Source: Streptomyces rugosispiralis (GTDB lineage Bacteria; Actinomycetota; Actinomycetes; Streptomycetales; Streptomycetaceae). Taken from it: 64,000 nucleotides of DNA. The stretch lies in contig NZ_JANIAA010000036.1 in assembly GCF_024505145.1 (NCBI RefSeq), forward strand, positions 1 to 64,000, given 5' to 3'. Shown here piece by piece: positions 37,030 through 43,440 of this stretch. The notes under the pieces are model-generated. The model saw only the letters and a program-made list of their open reading frames with translations. It made no database searches and was not told the origin of the DNA. Position 1 is the first letter of the stretch, and each line of letters starts with the position of its first letter. The translations under genes and the position numbers were made by a program.

Positions 37030-37188
37030 GCGACGCCTCCGTGGCGCTCGTAGCTCAATACCCTGTGTGAGCAAGGCAACACCCAAGGCATGGCAGATCT
37101 CAGCAATGTTGCAACCAATCCGCGAAGATGATTGGACTGCCCCACTCGAGCGGGGCACACTGACACCGATTCCCCTGGAGGACCGGCC

Positions 37189-38076
37189 GTGGCGCTGCGA
37201 ACGCTCATCACCGAACGGCAACGCCGACTTGGCGCAGAGCTCAAGAAGTTACGGCTCAAGGCAGAGTTGTCGATCGCCGACGGCGGCAAGCGGATCGGCA
37301 TGGGCGCGCCTCACCTGAGCCACATCGAGGCTGGGCGGACTGCCATCCCAGCGGATCGCCTGCGCGATCTCGTTGACGCTTACGGGTGCAAGAATGAACC
37401 GTACGTTGACGAGCTTGTCAGCATGGCCGAGAGCAGTGGCAAGGGTTGGTGGTCGACGTATCGGAAGTCCTTCCCGCAGTCCACACTCGACCTCGCCGAG
37501 CTGGAATCCCGGACGACGACGGTCCAGACATACGAAACCCTTCTGATCCCCGGCCTGTTGCAGACCGAGTCGTACATGCGCGCCCTGTTCCGCAGCGGAC
37601 TCCCTGACGCCTCACCCGAGGAGATCGAGCAACTCGTCCGCTTCCGAAGAGCGCGCCAGGCCATCCTGGGACCTGATCAGCCCGTCGCCTTCCAAGCGGT
37701 CATTCACGAGGCTGCGCTCCGCATGGAGGTGGGCGGTCCGCACGTCATGAGGGAGCAACTGGTTCAGCTCATCCGGGTATCGATGAACCCGCACATGACC
37801 ATCCAGGTCTTGCCCTTCAAAGTCGGCGCACGCTTCTGGCACAGCACGCCATTCCTCGTCTTGGGAGTCGGAGTTCCGGGCCTCGAGACCGTGGTCGCGG
37901 ATCACCCGTCCGCGAACCTGCGGCTCGGCGATCCCGAGTCCATCGCGCGCTACGAATCCACATTCAGCGATCTGAGCCAGAGCGCACTGCCACCGGTAGT
38001 CGCAGATGCGACCCCCGAACTCCACGAACAGCGTGACTCGTGGGGCCTCCTCCAACACATCCTTTACACCCTCTAG
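37189..38076 (+). CDS. Scr1-type XRE regulator (DUF5753), whiJ/abaA-like
   Basis: 295-aa protein. N-terminal HTH (LGAELKKLRLKAELSIADGG, ...MGAPHLSHIEAGRTAIP) is followed by the long DUF5753 domain starting at TYETLLIPGLLQTE. GTG 37189 is preceded by GGAGG. A TTA codon at 37249-37251 within the HTH makes it bldA-dependent. DUF397 follows 10 bp downstream. In Streptomyces such XRE/DUF397/ATPase clusters (whiJ, abaA and many paralogues) act in development; the precise target here is unknown. Confidence 0.92.
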   Translation: MALRTLITERQRRLGAELKKLRLKAELSIADGGKRIGMGAPHLSHIEAGRTAIPADRLRDLVDAYGCKNEPYVDELVSMAESSGKGWWSTYRKSFPQSTLDLAELESRTTTVQTYETLLIPGLLQTESYMRALFRSGLPDASPEEIEQLVRFRRARQAILGPDQPVAFQAVIHEAALRMEVGGPHVMREQLVQLIRVSMNPHMTIQVLPFKVGARFWHSTPFLVLGVGVPGLETVVADHPSANLRLGDPESIARYESTFSDLSQSALPPVVADATPELHEQRDSWGLLQHILYTL

Positions 38077-38086
38077 GGAAGGCATC

Positions 38087-38281
38087 ATGTCCGACCTCAC
38101 CTGGCGGAAGTCATCGTTCAGTGAAGCTGCTGCGGCCAACTGCATGGAACTCGCCGCCACCTCCGGCGGCATACACATACGCGAGAGCGACGAGCCCGAC
38201 GCGGTGGTCCGTACGACGCCCGCCGCGCTCGGCGTCTTCATACGTGCCGTGAAGGCCGGTCGACTCGATCGCACCCTCTGA
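38087..38281 (+). CDS. DUF397 small protein partner of the XRE regulator
   Basis: 64-aa protein with the DUF397 signature: LTWRKSSFSEAAAANCMELA at the N terminus, then IHIRESDEPDAVV and a C-terminal FIRAVKAGRLD. ATG 38087 follows GGGAAGG, 10 bp after the XRE gene, so they form a bicistron. DUF397 proteins are thought to modulate or antagonise the paired XRE regulator. Confidence 0.92.
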   Translation: MSDLTWRKSSFSEAAAANCMELAATSGGIHIRESDEPDAVVRTTPAALGVFIRAVKAGRLDRTL

Positions 38282-38310
38282 GCACAGGCCGGATGCCAGG
38301 CGCGGGTATC

Positions 38311-38594
38311 GTCTCGCGCGCTTCGCGCGATTGAGCAGCGGCGGCGGGGGCCGGGGCGCAGGGCGCGTTGCCGGCTGCCGGGCCGGTGGGGACCGCCTCC
38401 GGGTACCCCCTCCGAAAACGCTTGATCTGAAGCAACTACCTTGTCAAGGGTTTTCGGGAGAGGTACCCCCTGCGGCGTCCAGGCGCGGCTGATGGGTGAT
38501 CCAGCGTCGCAGTGGATGCGGAGTCCGGCGGTCCGGCGACGGGCCTCGCCCCCGCCCCCTGCCCCGCTGCTCAATCGCGCGAAGCGCACGAGAC
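38311..38594. repeat. Nested inverted-repeat element downstream of DUF397 (contains hairpin element A)
   Basis: Outer arms at 38311-38341 and 38564-38594 are inverted copies with one mismatch in 31. Nested inside, arms 38401-38425 and 38444-38468 match at 21 of 25 positions around an 18-nt loop (element A). A left flank at about 38356-38374 also matches the flank of element B at 39988-40072. The 397-bp gap between DUF397 and the methyltransferase holds no gene; ORFs across it are structural artefacts. Confidence 0.8.
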
Positions 38595-38678
38595 GGCGCC
38601 GCACCCGACCGATGCGGCACGGCGGAGGCGGCGCGTCGGGCGAGCGGGACGGCCCCGGCCGATGAGACGGCGCTCCGG

Positions 38679-39788
38679 CTACGCGGCGGGCAGGGGCCAT
38701 GCCACCGAGGGATCGCCGAGCCATACCCGGTGGTGGCCGTCGGCCGTTACCGTCAGGCCGAAGTCGAACAGCTCCGGCCGCCCGGTGCCCGCCCACCAGG
38801 CGAGGGCACCGGCGGTCTCGTCAGCCAGGTCTCGCGGACCCCACTGGTGCACCGTGCCATCGCTCGCGTACGCCCACGAGTCCCGGCTGCACCACCAGTG
38901 CCCGCCGTCCTGTGGCCAGTGCGCCACGTCCGCAAGCCTCAGCCCGACCGCGAACTCGGCGTGTGGGTCGGCGAGCCGGGTGATGTCCAACTCCGCTTTG
39001 CTCTCGCGGCTCTCCTCCCACGCTTCCGTGGAGCAGACTTCATCGATACGCGGATGTGCGCGCTGGCCACGCACCGCCATGAACGTCACCGCGCCCGCGA
39101 ACCGGCCCTCGGCACGGCCCTCCGAGACGGTCAGCCGCGCGAGTCCGTGTGAGCAGAACGCGGTCCGGAAGGGGGCCAGGATCAGGCCGCCGGGCCGCAT
39201 CTGCTCCACCCACGCCCATGGGATCGACATCACCGAGGCCGTCGCCACCAGCCGGTCGTACGGGGCGCAGCTGCGCCAGCCCTGCTCGCCGTCCGCTTCG
39301 AGCACGGTCACCTCGCCGTACCCGGCCCGGTGCAGCGCGGCCCGTGCGCCATCGGCCACATCCGGGTCGATCTCCAGGGTGGTCACCCGCCCGGCGCCCG
39401 CCCGCTCGGCCAGCAGTGCCGCGTTGTACCCGGTGCCCGCCCCGATCTCCAGCACCCGATGCCCCGGCCGCAGGTCCAGCTCGGCGAGCATAGTCACCAC
39501 GGCGGCCAGTGCGGAGATGGAGCTGGTGGGCACATCGCCGCCAGCGGGATCGGGGGCACCGTCGTCCACCTGCGTGGCAATGGCCTGTGCGGGGTCGTAC
39601 ACCATGCGGGCCCACCGTTCCGGGTCGTCCTCTCGGCGGAGCGGCCGGTATACGCCGCCGCCCAGCACCCATACGGTGCTGGGGACGAACTCGTGCCGCG
39701 GGACGGCCCCGAACGCGCGCCGTACCCACGGCTCGGCGATGTCGAGCGTCTCGGCCGCCCTCGCGCGTAGCCCTTCCAGGTCGGTCAC
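38679..39788 (-). CDS. PCMT-like SAM-dependent methyltransferase
   Basis: 369-aa enzyme related to protein-L-isoaspartate O-methyltransferase. Core motifs: TSSISALAAVVTMLAELDL (the PCMT-type motif before motif I), motif I VLEIGAGTGYNAALLA, acidic LEIDPDVA, and YDRLVATASVMSIPWAWVEQMRPGG. The N-terminal ~60 aa (RRAFGAVPRHEFVPSTVW) is also PCMT-like. The C-terminal ~140 aa extension fits the peptide-maturation relatives found beside RiPP precursors. GTG 39788 overlaps the stop of a 39-codon gene by 4 bp (GTGA), so the two are translationally coupled. No ATP-grasp ligase or lanthionine synthetase is nearby. Confidence 0.85.
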   Translation of the reverse strand: MTDLEGLRARAAETLDIAEPWVRRAFGAVPRHEFVPSTVWVLGGGVYRPLRREDDPERWARMVYDPAQAIATQVDDGAPDPAGGDVPTSSISALAAVVTMLAELDLRPGHRVLEIGAGTGYNAALLAERAGAGRVTTLEIDPDVADGARAALHRAGYGEVTVLEADGEQGWRSCAPYDRLVATASVMSIPWAWVEQMRPGGLILAPFRTAFCSHGLARLTVSEGRAEGRFAGAVTFMAVRGQRAHPRIDEVCSTEAWEESRESKAELDITRLADPHAEFAVGLRLADVAHWPQDGGHWWCSRDSWAYASDGTVHQWGPRDLADETAGALAWWAGTGRPELFDFGLTVTADGHHRVWLGDPSVAWPLPAA

Positions 39789-39904
39789 TTGCGGTGCGTC
39801 CCACCGCCCGGCCTGGAGACATCCGGATGCTGTCCGTCCGAGTCCCGCGGGCTCGGCTGCTTCGGCTGCGGGTTCGGTGTGGGCGGCTTGCCGTGCGTTC
39901 CCAT
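39785..39904 (-). CDS. 39-aa Pro-rich peptide coupled to the methyltransferase
   Basis: The product starts MGTHGKPPTPNPQPKQPSP, is Pro-rich and hydrophilic, contains a D-S-D-G stretch (RDSDGQHPD) and ends GGGTHRK. Support for a real gene is AAGGGGG just before ATG 39904 and a 4-bp GTGA overlap with the downstream methyltransferase start. Asp-Gly and Asp-Ser steps are the classic sites for isoaspartate formation, so it could be a substrate or precursor of the PCMT-like enzyme. No leader/core boundary is recognisable, so a RiPP role is only a hypothesis. Confidence 0.65.
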   Translation of the reverse strand: MGTHGKPPTPNPQPKQPSPRDSDGQHPDVSRPGGGTHRK

Positions 39905-39987
39905 GTGGGCCCCCTTGCATCGGTGGTCAAGCAACCAGTGTGGGCTTCGCCCGTCGAGAGACAGTAGAGCGCGTATGCACCAACCGG

Positions 39988-40072
39988 GCGCAAGGCACGT
40001 TGCCGGCCCTCCTGGGTATCCCTCTCGAAATCGCTTGATCTGGCGCAACTAATACATCAAGCGATTTCCAGG
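39988..40072. repeat. Hairpin element B (relative of element A)
   Basis: A perfect 13-bp stem pairs GAAATCGCTTGAT (40027-40039) with 40056-40068 around a 16-nt loop containing GCGCAACTA. Element A at 38401-38468 has the same stem start and a matching loop (AAGCAACTA) in the same orientation. The stem differs by an A-T to T-A swap on both sides, a compensatory change. The preceding ~20 bp also match between copies. It sits between the hydrolase stop and the 39-aa gene, and may act as a terminator, a regulator or a recombination site. Confidence 0.75.
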
Positions 40073-40089
40073 GGGCCGCCGCGCCCTGC

Positions 40090-40977
40090 TCAGACCCAGC
40101 GCTTCATGAACTCGATCGCCGCGGAGTCGACCTCCTCGGGGTTCGAGGCGCTCAGGAAGTGCTGCCCGCCCTCGATGGTTTCCAGACGTGCCTCGGGGGA
40201 GCGGGTGAACATCCGGATCTCCTCCTGGGCGTTCGCCACCGAGTACACCTGATCCGCGGTGCCGTGCAGCCACAGGACGGGGCAGCGGACATCGTCGAGC
40301 CTGCCGTGGAGCCCGTCGCGGTCGCGCAGGTTCACCGTGCTGAGGCGCAGGCGGTGGCGCCCGGCGTCGCCGGCGTAGTTCGCACGGTAGGTGGCGAGCC
40401 AGAACTCACGTTCCTCGCCCGAGACGCCGCCCAGGGCCGCGTCGAACACGTCGTCCACGAACTGGTCCGGCACGACCCAGTCCTCGCCGACCCGGTCGGC
40501 GAAGGCGTCGACGATCGGCGTGTTGAACCCGATCCCGTCCCAGCACCCCAGGTCGCGGCTGCGTGGGCTCTCGAAGTCCATCGACGTACCGAGCGGGATG
40601 AGGCCCTTCACGACGTCCGGGGCGAGCAGCGCCATGCGGACCGCCACCCAGCCGCCTTGCGAGGTCCCCAGCACGAAGGTCTCACGGATCCCGAGCGCCT
40701 CCAGGGCCTGGAGGCCCGCGACCGCGCTGTCCCAGTAGGTGAAGTGCTGGTACGAGGCCCTCGTGCGGCCGTGCCCATAGGGCTCCAGGGCGAGCAGGTT
40801 GGCCGCGGACCCGAGCGCCGGGTCGGCGAACTGCGGCCGGTACAGCTCGGCCGAGGTGGTGTACGAGTTGATCAGGACCAGCGTCGGCAGCGCGGGGTCG
40901 TACGGCCTGGCGAAGGTGCACCCGACGGTCGACCCGCCCAGGTGGGGTATCTCCACCGTCTGCTCAATATTGCTCAT
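40090..40977 (-). CDS. Alpha/beta hydrolase
   Basis: 295-aa hydrolase. Nucleophile elbow GTSQGGW (Ser ~115), acid in LHGTADQVY, His in GGQHFLS; the oxyanion region is LVLINSYTTSAEL. ATG 40977 follows GAGGAG (a TTG three bases earlier is rejected). It lies 42 bp after the MFS gene on the same strand, suggesting an MFS-hydrolase operon under the divergent AraC regulator. A natural-product ester, lactone or dienelactone substrate is possible but cannot be chosen from sequence. Confidence 0.85.
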   Translation of the reverse strand: MSNIEQTVEIPHLGGSTVGCTFARPYDPALPTLVLINSYTTSAELYRPQFADPALGSAANLLALEPYGHGRTRASYQHFTYWDSAVAGLQALEALGIRETFVLGTSQGGWVAVRMALLAPDVVKGLIPLGTSMDFESPRSRDLGCWDGIGFNTPIVDAFADRVGEDWVVPDQFVDDVFDAALGGVSGEEREFWLATYRANYAGDAGRHRLRLSTVNLRDRDGLHGRLDDVRCPVLWLHGTADQVYSVANAQEEIRMFTRSPEARLETIEGGQHFLSASNPEEVDSAAIEFMKRWV

Positions 40978-41019
40978 CAATTACTCCTCGTATACATGGG
41001 AAATTTCGGCATCGACGAA

Positions 41020-42285
41020 TTAGTTCAGTGCGCGGTGTCGGGGCGCTTTCACCCGCAGTACGATCAGCAACGCGGAGGCGAGCAACACCACGCCGGAAAC
41101 GGTGAATACGGTCGTGACGCCGCCGATACCGAACATCACACCGCCCGCGGCAGCCCCGCCGGCGATAGCGGACTGCACACCTACCACCACCAGCCCGCCC
41201 GCACTTTCCGCGTGGTCGGGCACCATACGAGTGGCCCAGTTCGACCATGCCACCGATACACCGCCAAAGGCGAGGCCCCAGAGGACCACCAGAGCCACAT
41301 ACCCGGCTTGCCCGGCGGGAAGCAGGGCCAGGCCCAGTGCCGCAACGCCCATCAGCACCGGCGTCAGCGTCAATGTCAGGCGCAGGCTGATCTCCAATAG
41401 CCATCCGGCCACCAGCGTACCGACGAAGTTCGCCACTCCGAAGGCGAACAACAGCAGCGCCAACTCATCGACGTCGACTTTCACCACGTTTTCCAGAGTG
41501 GGCCGGATATAGGTGAACAGTGCGTAGTGCCCAATGTGAACCAGGAGCATCCCCGCAATGCCAACCCCGAAACCCGGGCGTCGCAGCACCTCCCACAACG
41601 TGCTCAGCTTTGCCGTGCCATGGGGCGCCATCCGGGGCAGCGCGAACAATTGGAACACCAACGTCACCACCCCGAGTGCGGCCGCCGCCAGGAAGGTGCT
41701 GCGCCAGCCGGACAGCTCGCCGAGGTAGCTGCCGAGCGGCACCGCCACGATGGTCGCCACCGCGATGCCGCTGAAGATGACCGCTACCGCACGCGGAACC
41801 AAAGCCGCGGGCACCAGACGCATCGCCACCGCCGCCGCCATGCTCCAGAAGCCACCGAGTGCGACACCCAGCAGAATCCGCATCAGCAACAGCACCATGA
41901 CGTTGGCGGCCACGGCCACCAGCAGATTAGAAACGATCAACAGGACGGTGAAGCCGAGCAACACGATCCTTCGGTCGACCCTCCGGGTCAGGCTCGCCGT
42001 CAGCAAACCGGAAAGCATCGCCGCCACCGCCGTGACAGTCACCGACTGCCCCACCAGAGCTTCCGATACTCCTAGGTCGTCGGCCATCGGGGTCAACAAG
42101 CTGGCCGGCAGATATTCCGCCGTCAGCAACCCGAAAACACCCACCGCCAACGAGAACACCGCCGCCCACGACGATGAGGCCGGTTCGGGCGGTATCCGTT
42201 TCGCACCGGCCGCTTCGCCGGGGCCGGCATCGGGCAGGGTGGCGCATACATCACTGCTCAACTGTTTACTTCCCCTGAATCGCAT
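41020..42285 (-). CDS. MFS transporter (DHA1 type, 12 TMS)
   Basis: 421-aa exporter. Twelve hydrophobic helices start near residue 40 (FSLAVGVFGLLTAEYLPASLL), with motif-A-like loop LTRRVDRRIVLLGF and mid-protein IAVATIVAVPLGSYLGELSGWRSTF. It resembles the AraJ/NepI branch of drug-H+ antiporters. ATG 42285 lacks a ribosome-binding site; an in-frame TTG at 42261, eight nt after AGGGGAAG, is an equally good start. Only 43 bp separate it from the divergent AraC gene, its probable regulator. Confidence 0.88.
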   Translation of the reverse strand: MRFRGSKQLSSDVCATLPDAGPGEAAGAKRIPPEPASSSWAAVFSLAVGVFGLLTAEYLPASLLTPMADDLGVSEALVGQSVTVTAVAAMLSGLLTASLTRRVDRRIVLLGFTVLLIVSNLLVAVAANVMVLLLMRILLGVALGGFWSMAAAVAMRLVPAALVPRAVAVIFSGIAVATIVAVPLGSYLGELSGWRSTFLAAAALGVVTLVFQLFALPRMAPHGTAKLSTLWEVLRRPGFGVGIAGMLLVHIGHYALFTYIRPTLENVVKVDVDELALLLFAFGVANFVGTLVAGWLLEISLRLTLTLTPVLMGVAALGLALLPAGQAGYVALVVLWGLAFGGVSVAWSNWATRMVPDHAESAGGLVVVGVQSAIAGGAAAGGVMFGIGGVTTVFTVSGVVLLASALLIVLRVKAPRHRALN

Positions 42286-42328
42286 GAGACGTTCAAGTCA
42301 AGCCTGCACGCGAAATTCAGGATGAGCT

Positions 42329-43351
42329 ATGACAGAAAGTCCGCAATATTTGATCGAGGCTCCGGGCGGGGGTGCCACAGCACAGTTCGCCCTGTCGTCC
42401 GACCTCATCAGCGAACTGCTGACCAGCATGCGGCTGAGCGGTGTTCGGTATCGTCGTGTCCATGCTGGCCCGCGGTTCGGCCTCAATTTCGACGCCAAGC
42501 CCGGACGCGCCTCTTTCCACTTCCTCGCCGTCGGCTCCGCCGTCCTGCGCACCGAGGACGGAACTGTCCACAAGCTCTCGGCGGGCAACGCCGTATTCAT
42601 GCCACACGGCGAGTCCCATCAGCTGCTCTCCGGTCCGGACATACCGGTCCGGAACATAGACAGCTTCGACGCGGTCTCTCTCAGCGATTCGGTGTGCGAT
42701 GTGGATGCCTGCCCGAGCGCCGACCCGGCTCCCGGCGCGATCTTCTTCAACGGCTCCATGGAGTTCGACCTCGGCGGAATGCAGGGCCTCAGCCGGTTGA
42801 TGCCCGATGTCATGCTGGTCGACGCCGAGGGGAAGCGTTACCCCGGGCTCATGCCGATCCTCGCGTCCATGAGGCGCGAAGTCTGCGCCGAACGTGTGGG
42901 CTTCGCCGGCATCCTCGCTCGTCTGGCCGAAGTGGCGGCGGCCATGATCGTGCGGGGCTGGATCGAATGCGGCTGCGACAACACCTCCGGCCTCGTGGCC
43001 GCGTTGCGCGACCCCCGCCTGGCGTGCGCCATCCTGGCTCTGCACAGGCGACCCGGGCATCACTGGACCGTGGCGGAGCTGGCAGCGGAATGCAATGTCT
43101 CCCGATCCGTCTTCGCGGACCGATTCCAGACCACGATCGGCATGCCGCCCCTCCGTTACGCCACGGAGCTGCGGATGCTCCTCGCCAGCCAGTGGCTGGC
43201 CCAGGACACATTGCCGATCCAGTCCGTGGCGCAACGCCTCGGCTACACCTCGCAGGCCGCTTTCAGCCGTGCCTTCAAACGCGTCACCGGCCGGCCGCCG
43301 GGCGCCAGCAGGGACACCGCACGTTCGAGAGCCGCTGATGAGCGCGACTGA
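42329..43351 (+). CDS. AraC-family regulator with cupin-type sensor domain
   Basis: 340-aa regulator. The N-terminal cupin-like domain (AraC_binding/cupin_6 type) includes AGPRFGLNFDAKPG and FHFLAVGSAVLRTEDG, GNAVFMPHGESHQLL. The C-terminal double HTH: WTVAELAAECNVSRSVFADRFQ, GMPPLRYATELRMLLASQWL and IQSVAQRLGYTSQAAFSRAFKR. ATG 42329 follows AGGATGAG. Divergent from the MFS-hydrolase pair, which it likely controls with a small-molecule inducer. Confidence 0.9.
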   Translation: MTESPQYLIEAPGGGATAQFALSSDLISELLTSMRLSGVRYRRVHAGPRFGLNFDAKPGRASFHFLAVGSAVLRTEDGTVHKLSAGNAVFMPHGESHQLLSGPDIPVRNIDSFDAVSLSDSVCDVDACPSADPAPGAIFFNGSMEFDLGGMQGLSRLMPDVMLVDAEGKRYPGLMPILASMRREVCAERVGFAGILARLAEVAAAMIVRGWIECGCDNTSGLVAALRDPRLACAILALHRRPGHHWTVAELAAECNVSRSVFADRFQTTIGMPPLRYATELRMLLASQWLAQDTLPIQSVAQRLGYTSQAAFSRAFKRVTGRPPGASRDTARSRAADERD

Positions 43352-43440
43352 CGCATGCGTATGCGCGGAGCGGGGGCGGACAGTGGCGCCGCGCATCCGC
43401 TCCTGGGGCGGCTCGCGGAGGCGGCCTCCGGTACTTGCCT

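What the first reader, a model, noticed from the sequence alone, without database searches (positions are those of the whole stretch)
38401..40072. Covarying hairpin element duplicated on both sides of a methyltransferase cassette
Elements A (38401-38468) and B (39988-40072) have the same orientation, a shared ~20-bp flank, conserved loop core GCAACTA, and a compensatory A-T to T-A change in the stem. They bracket only the 39-aa gene and methyltransferase (38679-39904). This could be a cassette inserted by recombination at the element, or a structured RNA/DNA signal. Element A also lies inside a larger 31-bp inverted pair.
Basis: partly seen in the sequence, partly recalled or inferred. Interest (0 to 1): 0.6.

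Follow-up and report, generated by a model that had tools for sequence, protein, structure and literature searches.

The report
Streptomyces palindromic repeat with targeted loop
The two hairpins are copies of a roughly 400-base palindromic repeat scattered between genes in one branch of Streptomyces, and related mobile elements, one of them carrying a serine recombinase, have inserted into the repeat's conserved loop in two species.

Summary
The hairpins are real but do not bracket a methyltransferase cassette. Each is the centre of a foldback repeat (~400 bp when complete) with inverted outer arms and a conserved loop, TTGATCTGNNGCAACTA. The own genome has 19 copies plus one split by an insertion. 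The exact core occurs in 9 of 392 genus genomes sampled; named Streptomyces hits fall, as I recall the taxonomy, in the S. violaceusniger/hygroscopicus group. Neighbouring genes are diverse, many positions are shared between species, and the centre is inverted or lost between species. A and the methyltransferase are ancestral. B came with a ~3.4-kb block missing at that junction in 6 of 6 relatives read. Most informative: in the own genome a 6.26-kb element with a large serine recombinase splits one loop at GCAA. Three relatives keep that repeat intact. A related insert, without a recombinase found, sits at the same point of another copy in G071. So the loop behaves as a dispersed attB. Covariation is weak. 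Filed as a new variant of intergenic palindromic repeats targeted by mobile elements. How it spreads, and why its loop is conserved, remain open.

The parts
38310..38595 (+). Foldback element A with both outer arms (38310-38358 and 38547-38595)
   Evidence: 49-nt arms, 90% complementary; arm motif at -94 and +139 of A's core, and at about -150/+158 in many complete copies
38400..38476 (+). Central hairpin of A with core TTGATCTGAAGCAACTA (core 38422-38438)
   Evidence: E 1.6e-19
39986..40075 (+). Element B: central hairpin with truncated arms, core TTGATCTGGCGCAACTA (40035-40051)
   Evidence: E 2.1e-20; no arm motif within 500 nt
39993..43369 (.). Block present in this genome and missing at this junction in 6 of 6 relatives read; contains B, an alpha/beta hydrolase (40090-40980), an MFS transporter (41020-42159) and an AraC/cupin regulator (42329-43351)
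   Evidence: the two sides are joined in G071, G166, G181, G388 and G400, while G112 has about 1.26 kb of other sequence there; 41039-43354 is orthologous to a locus elsewhere in G181, G071 and G400
37132..38076 (+). XRE/HTH-DUF5753 regulator upstream of A
38087..38281 (+). DUF397 protein ending about 120 nt before A's hairpin
38679..39788 (-). PCMT-type methyltransferase between A and B (ancestral neighbour of A; start codon uncertain)
   Evidence: (PF01135; TIGR04188 285 bits, below its cut-off of 380)

Best explanation
A and B are two copies of a dispersed, intergenic foldback repeat specific to one Streptomyces clade. A complete copy is about 400 bp. It consists of long inverted arms around an asymmetric loop with the conserved core TTGATCTGNNGCAACTA, closed by TTGA/TCAA. 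Shown: copies occupy many orthologous positions beside unrelated genes; between species the centre is inverted in place or lost while outer arms or remnants remain; and one loop in this genome is split at GCAA by an element with a large serine recombinase, at a site that is intact in relatives. Inferred: the loop is that recombinase's attB; the repeat is mainly a selfish or neutral foldback element inherited vertically; its loop inversions and central deletions come from recombination or replication slippage between the arms; and serine-recombinase elements exploit the loop as a harmless multi-copy landing site. How the repeat originally spread is unknown. The A-B bracket is incidental, because B arrived with a ~3.4-kb block.
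For: Copies and clade restriction. Full anatomy and long hairpin; one search gives 86-164 predicted pairs across the centre in 15 copies. Orthologous positions. Diverse neighbours. Inversion at cobU/cobT; at this and two further sites by flank matching: (one of them also by core strand). Remnants and empty sites. Integration: attL GGC-GCAA-GCAGCGG, attR TGTT-GCAA-CTAATT; Resolvase, Recombinase and Zn_ribbon domains; insert ends are inverted repeats; same flanks with an intact element in L117, L200 and L249; second insertion site intact in L263 and L256; insert length 6256. B's block.
Against: Only two loop insertions were found. The core is conserved better than the outer stems even in copies found by their arms (94% against 68-74%), which a neutral relic would not predict; the inner stem is nearly as conserved on its left side (91%) and at TCAA (98%), so the conserved part is wider than the loop. 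No transposase partner or target-site duplication was found. Five of 19 own-genome copies lie within 500 nt of a DUF397 domain, which a random scatter does not explain. Of 88 copies, 30 have no outer-arm motif within 500 nt at up to 1 mismatch (8 with a wider motif), so many copies are incomplete or diverged.
Confidence: 0.77

Rival explanations
1. The conserved loop is a protein-binding operator, for example of XRE-DUF397 regulators, and the repeats are a dispersed regulon.
For: Core conservation beyond the outer stems. Five of 19 own copies lie within 500 nt of a DUF397 domain, against 0.09 expected if uniform (45 of the 47 rows used, two short fragments left out). A DUF397 lies about 150-250 nt upstream on the same strand at several orthologous positions.
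Against: 14 of 19 own copies have no DUF397 domain within 500 nt. Of 30 flanking proteins scanned, those with a match belong to unrelated families. XRE/DUF397 loci are themselves duplicated: L171 and A share flanks, so the counts are not independent. Core orientation flips at orthologous sites.
Confidence: 0.1
2. The element acts as RNA: a large hairpin or bidirectional terminator, or a structured RNA read from the strand opposite to the core.
For: Unpaired cells in the inner stem are mostly A.C on the core strand (75, against 15 G.T), which would be G.U wobbles on the other strand. The opposite strand folds better in 80 of 108 copies, against 95 of 216 control windows. PMC8269248 (passages read) reports bidirectional transcript ends at XRE-DUF397 units.
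Against: No Rfam match at gathering thresholds in the window. Covariation is weak (43 double-change cells against 33.5 +- 4.3, 10/500 shuffles; score 46/500). The centre inverts relative to genes. Own copies also lie between divergent genes (L169, L173, L174). The strand bias could be mutational, and the copies are related.
Confidence: 0.1
3. One reading: A and B are recombination sites that delivered the 39-aa gene and methyltransferase as a cassette.
For: Same orientation and a shared 22-nt flank.
Against: The methyltransferase sits next to A in 5 relatives without B. The variable block lies beyond B.
Confidence: 0.02

Closest known systems
Enterobacterial and Yersinia intergenic palindromic repeats (ERIC/IRU, YPAL) and similar stem-loop families
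   Same: Intergenic, dispersed, foldback, not protein-coding (PMC2229807 and PMC2267715, passages read)
   Different: About 400 bp when complete instead of about 127-168 bp; no sequence match was tested; the loop is more conserved than the outer stem; central inversion and serine-recombinase integration seen here
REP/palindromic units targeted by insertion sequences (IS1397, IS621, ISKpn1, ISPpu9)
   Same: A mobile element uses a dispersed extragenic palindrome as its preferred target (PMC1525189 passages read; PMC8450116 start of abstract in a search listing)
   Different: IS1397 and ISKpn1 are IS3 family and IS621 is IS110 family (PMC1525189 passages). Here the enzyme is a large serine recombinase and the target is a ~400-bp foldback
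Multi-targeting large serine recombinases
   Same: One recombinase family with many potential attB sites in a genome (PMC10083194 passages read)
   Different: Here the potential sites belong to one repeat family; use of more than one by the same enzyme is not shown. The closest homologue in this genome (57% identity) has no core in its 19.9-kb region

Membership tests
attB site of a large serine recombinase | Integrase gene with Resolvase, Recombinase and Zn-ribbon domains at one end of the insert | tested here: met
   the ORF begins 8 nt inside the left junction. For the G071 insert no homologue was found
attB site of a large serine recombinase | Short identical core at both junctions and an intact pre-insertion site in relatives | tested here: met
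   GCAA at both junctions of the own-genome insert; intact in L117, L200, L249. The G071 insert shows one junction only
attB site of a large serine recombinase | Recombination shown with purified enzyme | not testable with these tools
   needs bench work
MITE | Terminal inverted repeats | tested here: met
   inverted outer arms; the exact termini were not fixed
MITE | Target-site duplication on insertion | tested here: inconclusive
   core-less orthologous sites at four positions; two read as sequence, two by motif scan only; the ends could not be fixed
MITE | Shorter than about 200 bp (PMC2229807) | tested here: not met
   outer arms about 300 bp apart, alignable element about 400 bp in complete copies
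REP/RAYT | 20-40 bp palindromes (PMC3733652, start of abstract in a search listing) | tested here: not met
Described Rfam RNA family | Score at or above gathering threshold | tested here: not met
   0 matches in the window

The most novel reading that the evidence does not exclude
The repeat and the serine-recombinase elements are co-adapted. The genome carries a dispersed array of pre-made attB sites, hidden in foldback loops at harmless intergenic places. The loop sequence is kept because recombinases use it, for integration and possibly for copying or inverting the repeat itself. This would be a palindromic repeat family maintained as an integration platform.
Probability: 0.15. Interest if true: 0.75.

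Novelty: new variant of a known kind. Interest (0 to 1): 0.5.

Why it matters
It links two things usually treated separately: dispersed extragenic palindromes and large-serine-recombinase integration. It names a concrete recombinase with a deduced attB, a deduced attP and about 20 candidate sites in one genome. That makes multi-site attB specificity directly testable and could give a multi-copy landing pad for a clade known (from memory) to be rich in antibiotic gene clusters. The conserved loop of a long palindrome that is repeatedly lost and inverted also asks what keeps it.

Tried and rejected
Cassette idea: rejected by orthologous junctions. Regulon idea: neighbours are unrelated, apart from a DUF397 excess. 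Structured RNA: no Rfam match and weak covariation. Plasmid and phage origin of the repeat: no blastn match to A's hairpin in either collection. Recombinase relatives in phages (723 records) and plasmids (59 records) are all under 60% identity; the top-ranked phage hit is Streptomyces phage Yosif, 30.6%. An inverted arm pair at window 18455/18589 looks like coding sequence by eye and was dropped as chance.

One search lists only the first places per genome: one search read 88 elements (86 exact, 2 one-mismatch own copies), not all 107 exact ones. Arm loci were picked from a truncated list, mostly away from cores already fetched. The 27 of 40 counted had to match the core at up to 4 mismatches and hold GCAAC and a TCA; near misses such as L253, L275 and L282 were left out. 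Alignment A1 holds 49 of the 113 distinct elements, chosen by me. The 115 elements fall in 32 groups, but the largest group chains several sites together, so 32 is not a site count. Inverted pairs involving L167, L194, L209 and L231, and those of L261 with L242, were not examined and are not counted. The two weak covariance-model hits in G074, a genome with no exact core copy (36.8 and 34.4 bits), have different loops and were not followed. A sixth own-genome copy (L167) has a weak DUF397-like match 33 nt away (E 4e-4); it is not among the five.

Papers: 10 searches (two searches found none). None of the listings shown names this repeat. I read passages of six papers and did not read supplements.

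Full report
Observation. A (38401-38468) and B (39988-40072) are real, co-oriented and 75% identical over 55 nt, and share a 22-nt flank. A sits between 49-nt inverted arms (38310-38358 and 38547-38595, 90% complementary). Rfam has no match in the window at gathering thresholds. A covariance model built from 49 copies, A and B among them, finds no third copy in the window.

A family, not a pair. The core TTGATCTGNNGCAACTA has 17 exact and 2 one-mismatch copies in the own genome. At up to 2 mismatches there are 22 matches against 8 for the reversed control. The covariance model returns the same 19 places as 22 matches, three being the reverse strand of a copy already listed. A twentieth copy is split by an insertion; its left half is one of the two-mismatch matches. 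Exact cores occur in 9 of 392 genus genomes sampled, 107 copies in all, with one control hit. They occur in 0 of the 40 other genomes in the relatives sample. Streptomyces titles among the named hits are violaceusniger, samsunensis, iranensis, endocoffeicus, sabulosicollis, hygroscopicus and sp. S465 (truncated); that these form one clade is recalled, not tested. G388 is probably S. iranensis DSM 41954, because contig lengths 470113 and 250114 agree.

Anatomy. In complete copies the outer-arm motif TTGAGCAGCGG lies at about -150 and, inverted, at about +158 of the core. With up to 1 mismatch and within 500 nt, 24 of 88 copies have both arms, 34 one and 30 none; with a wider motif that also admits variants, 52 have both, 28 one and 8 none. 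Sixteen copies chosen for their arms align over about 400 bp. Fifteen of these, folded as single strands, form 86-164 pairs across the centre. The 30-nt arm pattern (up to 3 mismatches) occurs in all 9 core-bearing genomes and in 0 of 20 other genomes tested. Among 40 loci fetched by their arms, 27 carry the core, with 0 to 2 mismatches. In the 16 such copies placed in alignment A1, the 15 core positions are 94% consensus, against 68-74% for the outer stem; the inner stem is 91% on the left, 98% at TCAA and 77% on the right.

Pairing against covariation. The named stem pairs at 71% of cells, against 37-49% when slid by 1 to 3 columns. Double changes (43 cells against 33.5 +- 4.3; 10 of 500 shuffles reach it) and the covariation score (46 of 500) are only slightly above shuffled. 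So this is an inherited DNA palindrome; selection on an RNA fold is not shown. One strand-specific hint remains: inner-stem departures are mostly A.C on the core strand (75, against 15 G.T), and the opposite strand folds better in 80 of 108 copies, against 95 of 216 control windows.

Positions and neighbours. By a crude gene caller, which misses short genes, none of the 88 elements first collected lies inside a gene. Many sit at orthologous positions in several species. Flanking genes are unrelated: CobU, a CobT-type phosphoribosyltransferase, CorA, a polyketide synthase, MFS, isochorismatase and others (30 proteins, some without a match). An excess near DUF397 exists: 5 of 19 own copies within 500 nt, against 0.09 expected if uniform. 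A and L171 are paralogous there, so the count is inflated.

Dynamics. At cobU/cobT the outer arms stay in place while the centre is inverted in G000 relative to G388 and G376; flank matching adds G112. At a CN_hydrolase gene G112 and G376 are inverted relative to six others (by flank matching only). At the site of the own-genome insertion G376 and S. hygroscopicus NBRC 13472 carry the core on the other strand from G388. At purD only G071 has the core, and G181 and G400 keep a short arm remnant. At proS five genomes have the element, three keep a remnant and G000 has none (remnants read by eye). This fits an old element that decays by central deletion. Long palindromes are known to be unstable (PMC3315005, passages read: a 246-bp palindrome is cut by SbcCD).

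Loop as integration site. In the own genome (L262) a repeat is split as CTTGATCTGGCGCAA|GCAGCGGAATGCC ... CAGGGTGTT|GCAACTAATTCATCAAG, with 6256 bp between the halves. The first gene inside encodes a 550-aa protein with Resolvase, Recombinase and Zn_ribbon_recom domains. The insert ends are inverted repeats (CGAATGTAGTTTCTT and CGAATGTATTTTCTT). The same flanks hold an intact repeat in S. hygroscopicus NBRC 13472 (L117), G376 (L200) and G388 (L249); G071 (L281) has the same flanks without a core. In G071 a related 3.8-kb insert ends at the same point (GTGTT|GCAAC) in another repeat whose site is intact in G181 (L263) and G376 (L256). There the left half of the repeat is lost and no recombinase homologue was found in the 39.8 kb fetched. 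A second recombinase in the own genome (57% identity, C35) has no core in its 19.9-kb region. Two insertions at one point of two different copies, with pre-insertion sites, support attB use; enzyme activity is inferred.

The window's own story. The DUF397-side flank, A and the methyltransferase are together in G000, G071, G112, G181, G388 and G400. The XRE gene itself aligned by blastn in G112, G181 and G388, not in G071 or G400. G166's contig begins at the methyltransferase. The stretch from 39993 to about 43369 is missing at that junction in 6 of 6 relatives read. Its two sides are joined in G071, G166, G181, G388 and G400; in G112 about 1.26 kb of other sequence lies there, without core or arm motif. 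Its part 41039-43354 (MFS and AraC) is orthologous to a locus elsewhere in G181, G071 and G400. B lies at its left edge. So the bracket is incidental.

Verdict. New variant of a known kind. Palindromic repeats as insertion-sequence targets are known (PMC1525189, passages read), and so are multi-targeting serine recombinases (PMC10083194, passages read). I did not find this combination, or this repeat, in the listings of the ten paper searches named in Tried and rejected. Open: how the repeat spreads, and why the loop is conserved.

Noticed in passing
L262:1227-7482 (own genome C6): The 6.26-kb integrated element also carries an NsdA-like regulator (55 bits, below the cut-off of 75) and a flavoprotein-domain protein; about 1.5 kb of it recurs at 87% identity about 2 kb from the second recombinase at C35.
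   Followed up: partly
window 39785-39904 (-) and 38679-39788 (-): The methyltransferase resembles ATP-grasp peptide maturase methyltransferases (TIGR04188, 285 bits, below the cut-off of 380), and the 39-aa ORF just upstream could be a peptide precursor; not tested.
   Followed up: no
L242 (G166 C1132) 188 and 336: Two copies of the central hairpin in tandem, 148 bp apart with near-identical sequence, suggesting local duplication of the centre.
   Followed up: no
L364, L365 (G074): A Streptomyces genome with no exact core copy has two weak covariance-model hits with similar stems but different loops; possibly a distant sister family.
   Followed up: partly
L261 (G071 C3:9790300-9792000): The outer arm and its flank are repeated three times in tandem with a 273-bp period.
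   Followed up: no
L361:1593-2848 (G112): At the junction where G000 has the 3.4-kb block, G112 has about 1.26 kb of other sequence without core or arm motif, so the site may be a hot spot for insertions.
   Followed up: no
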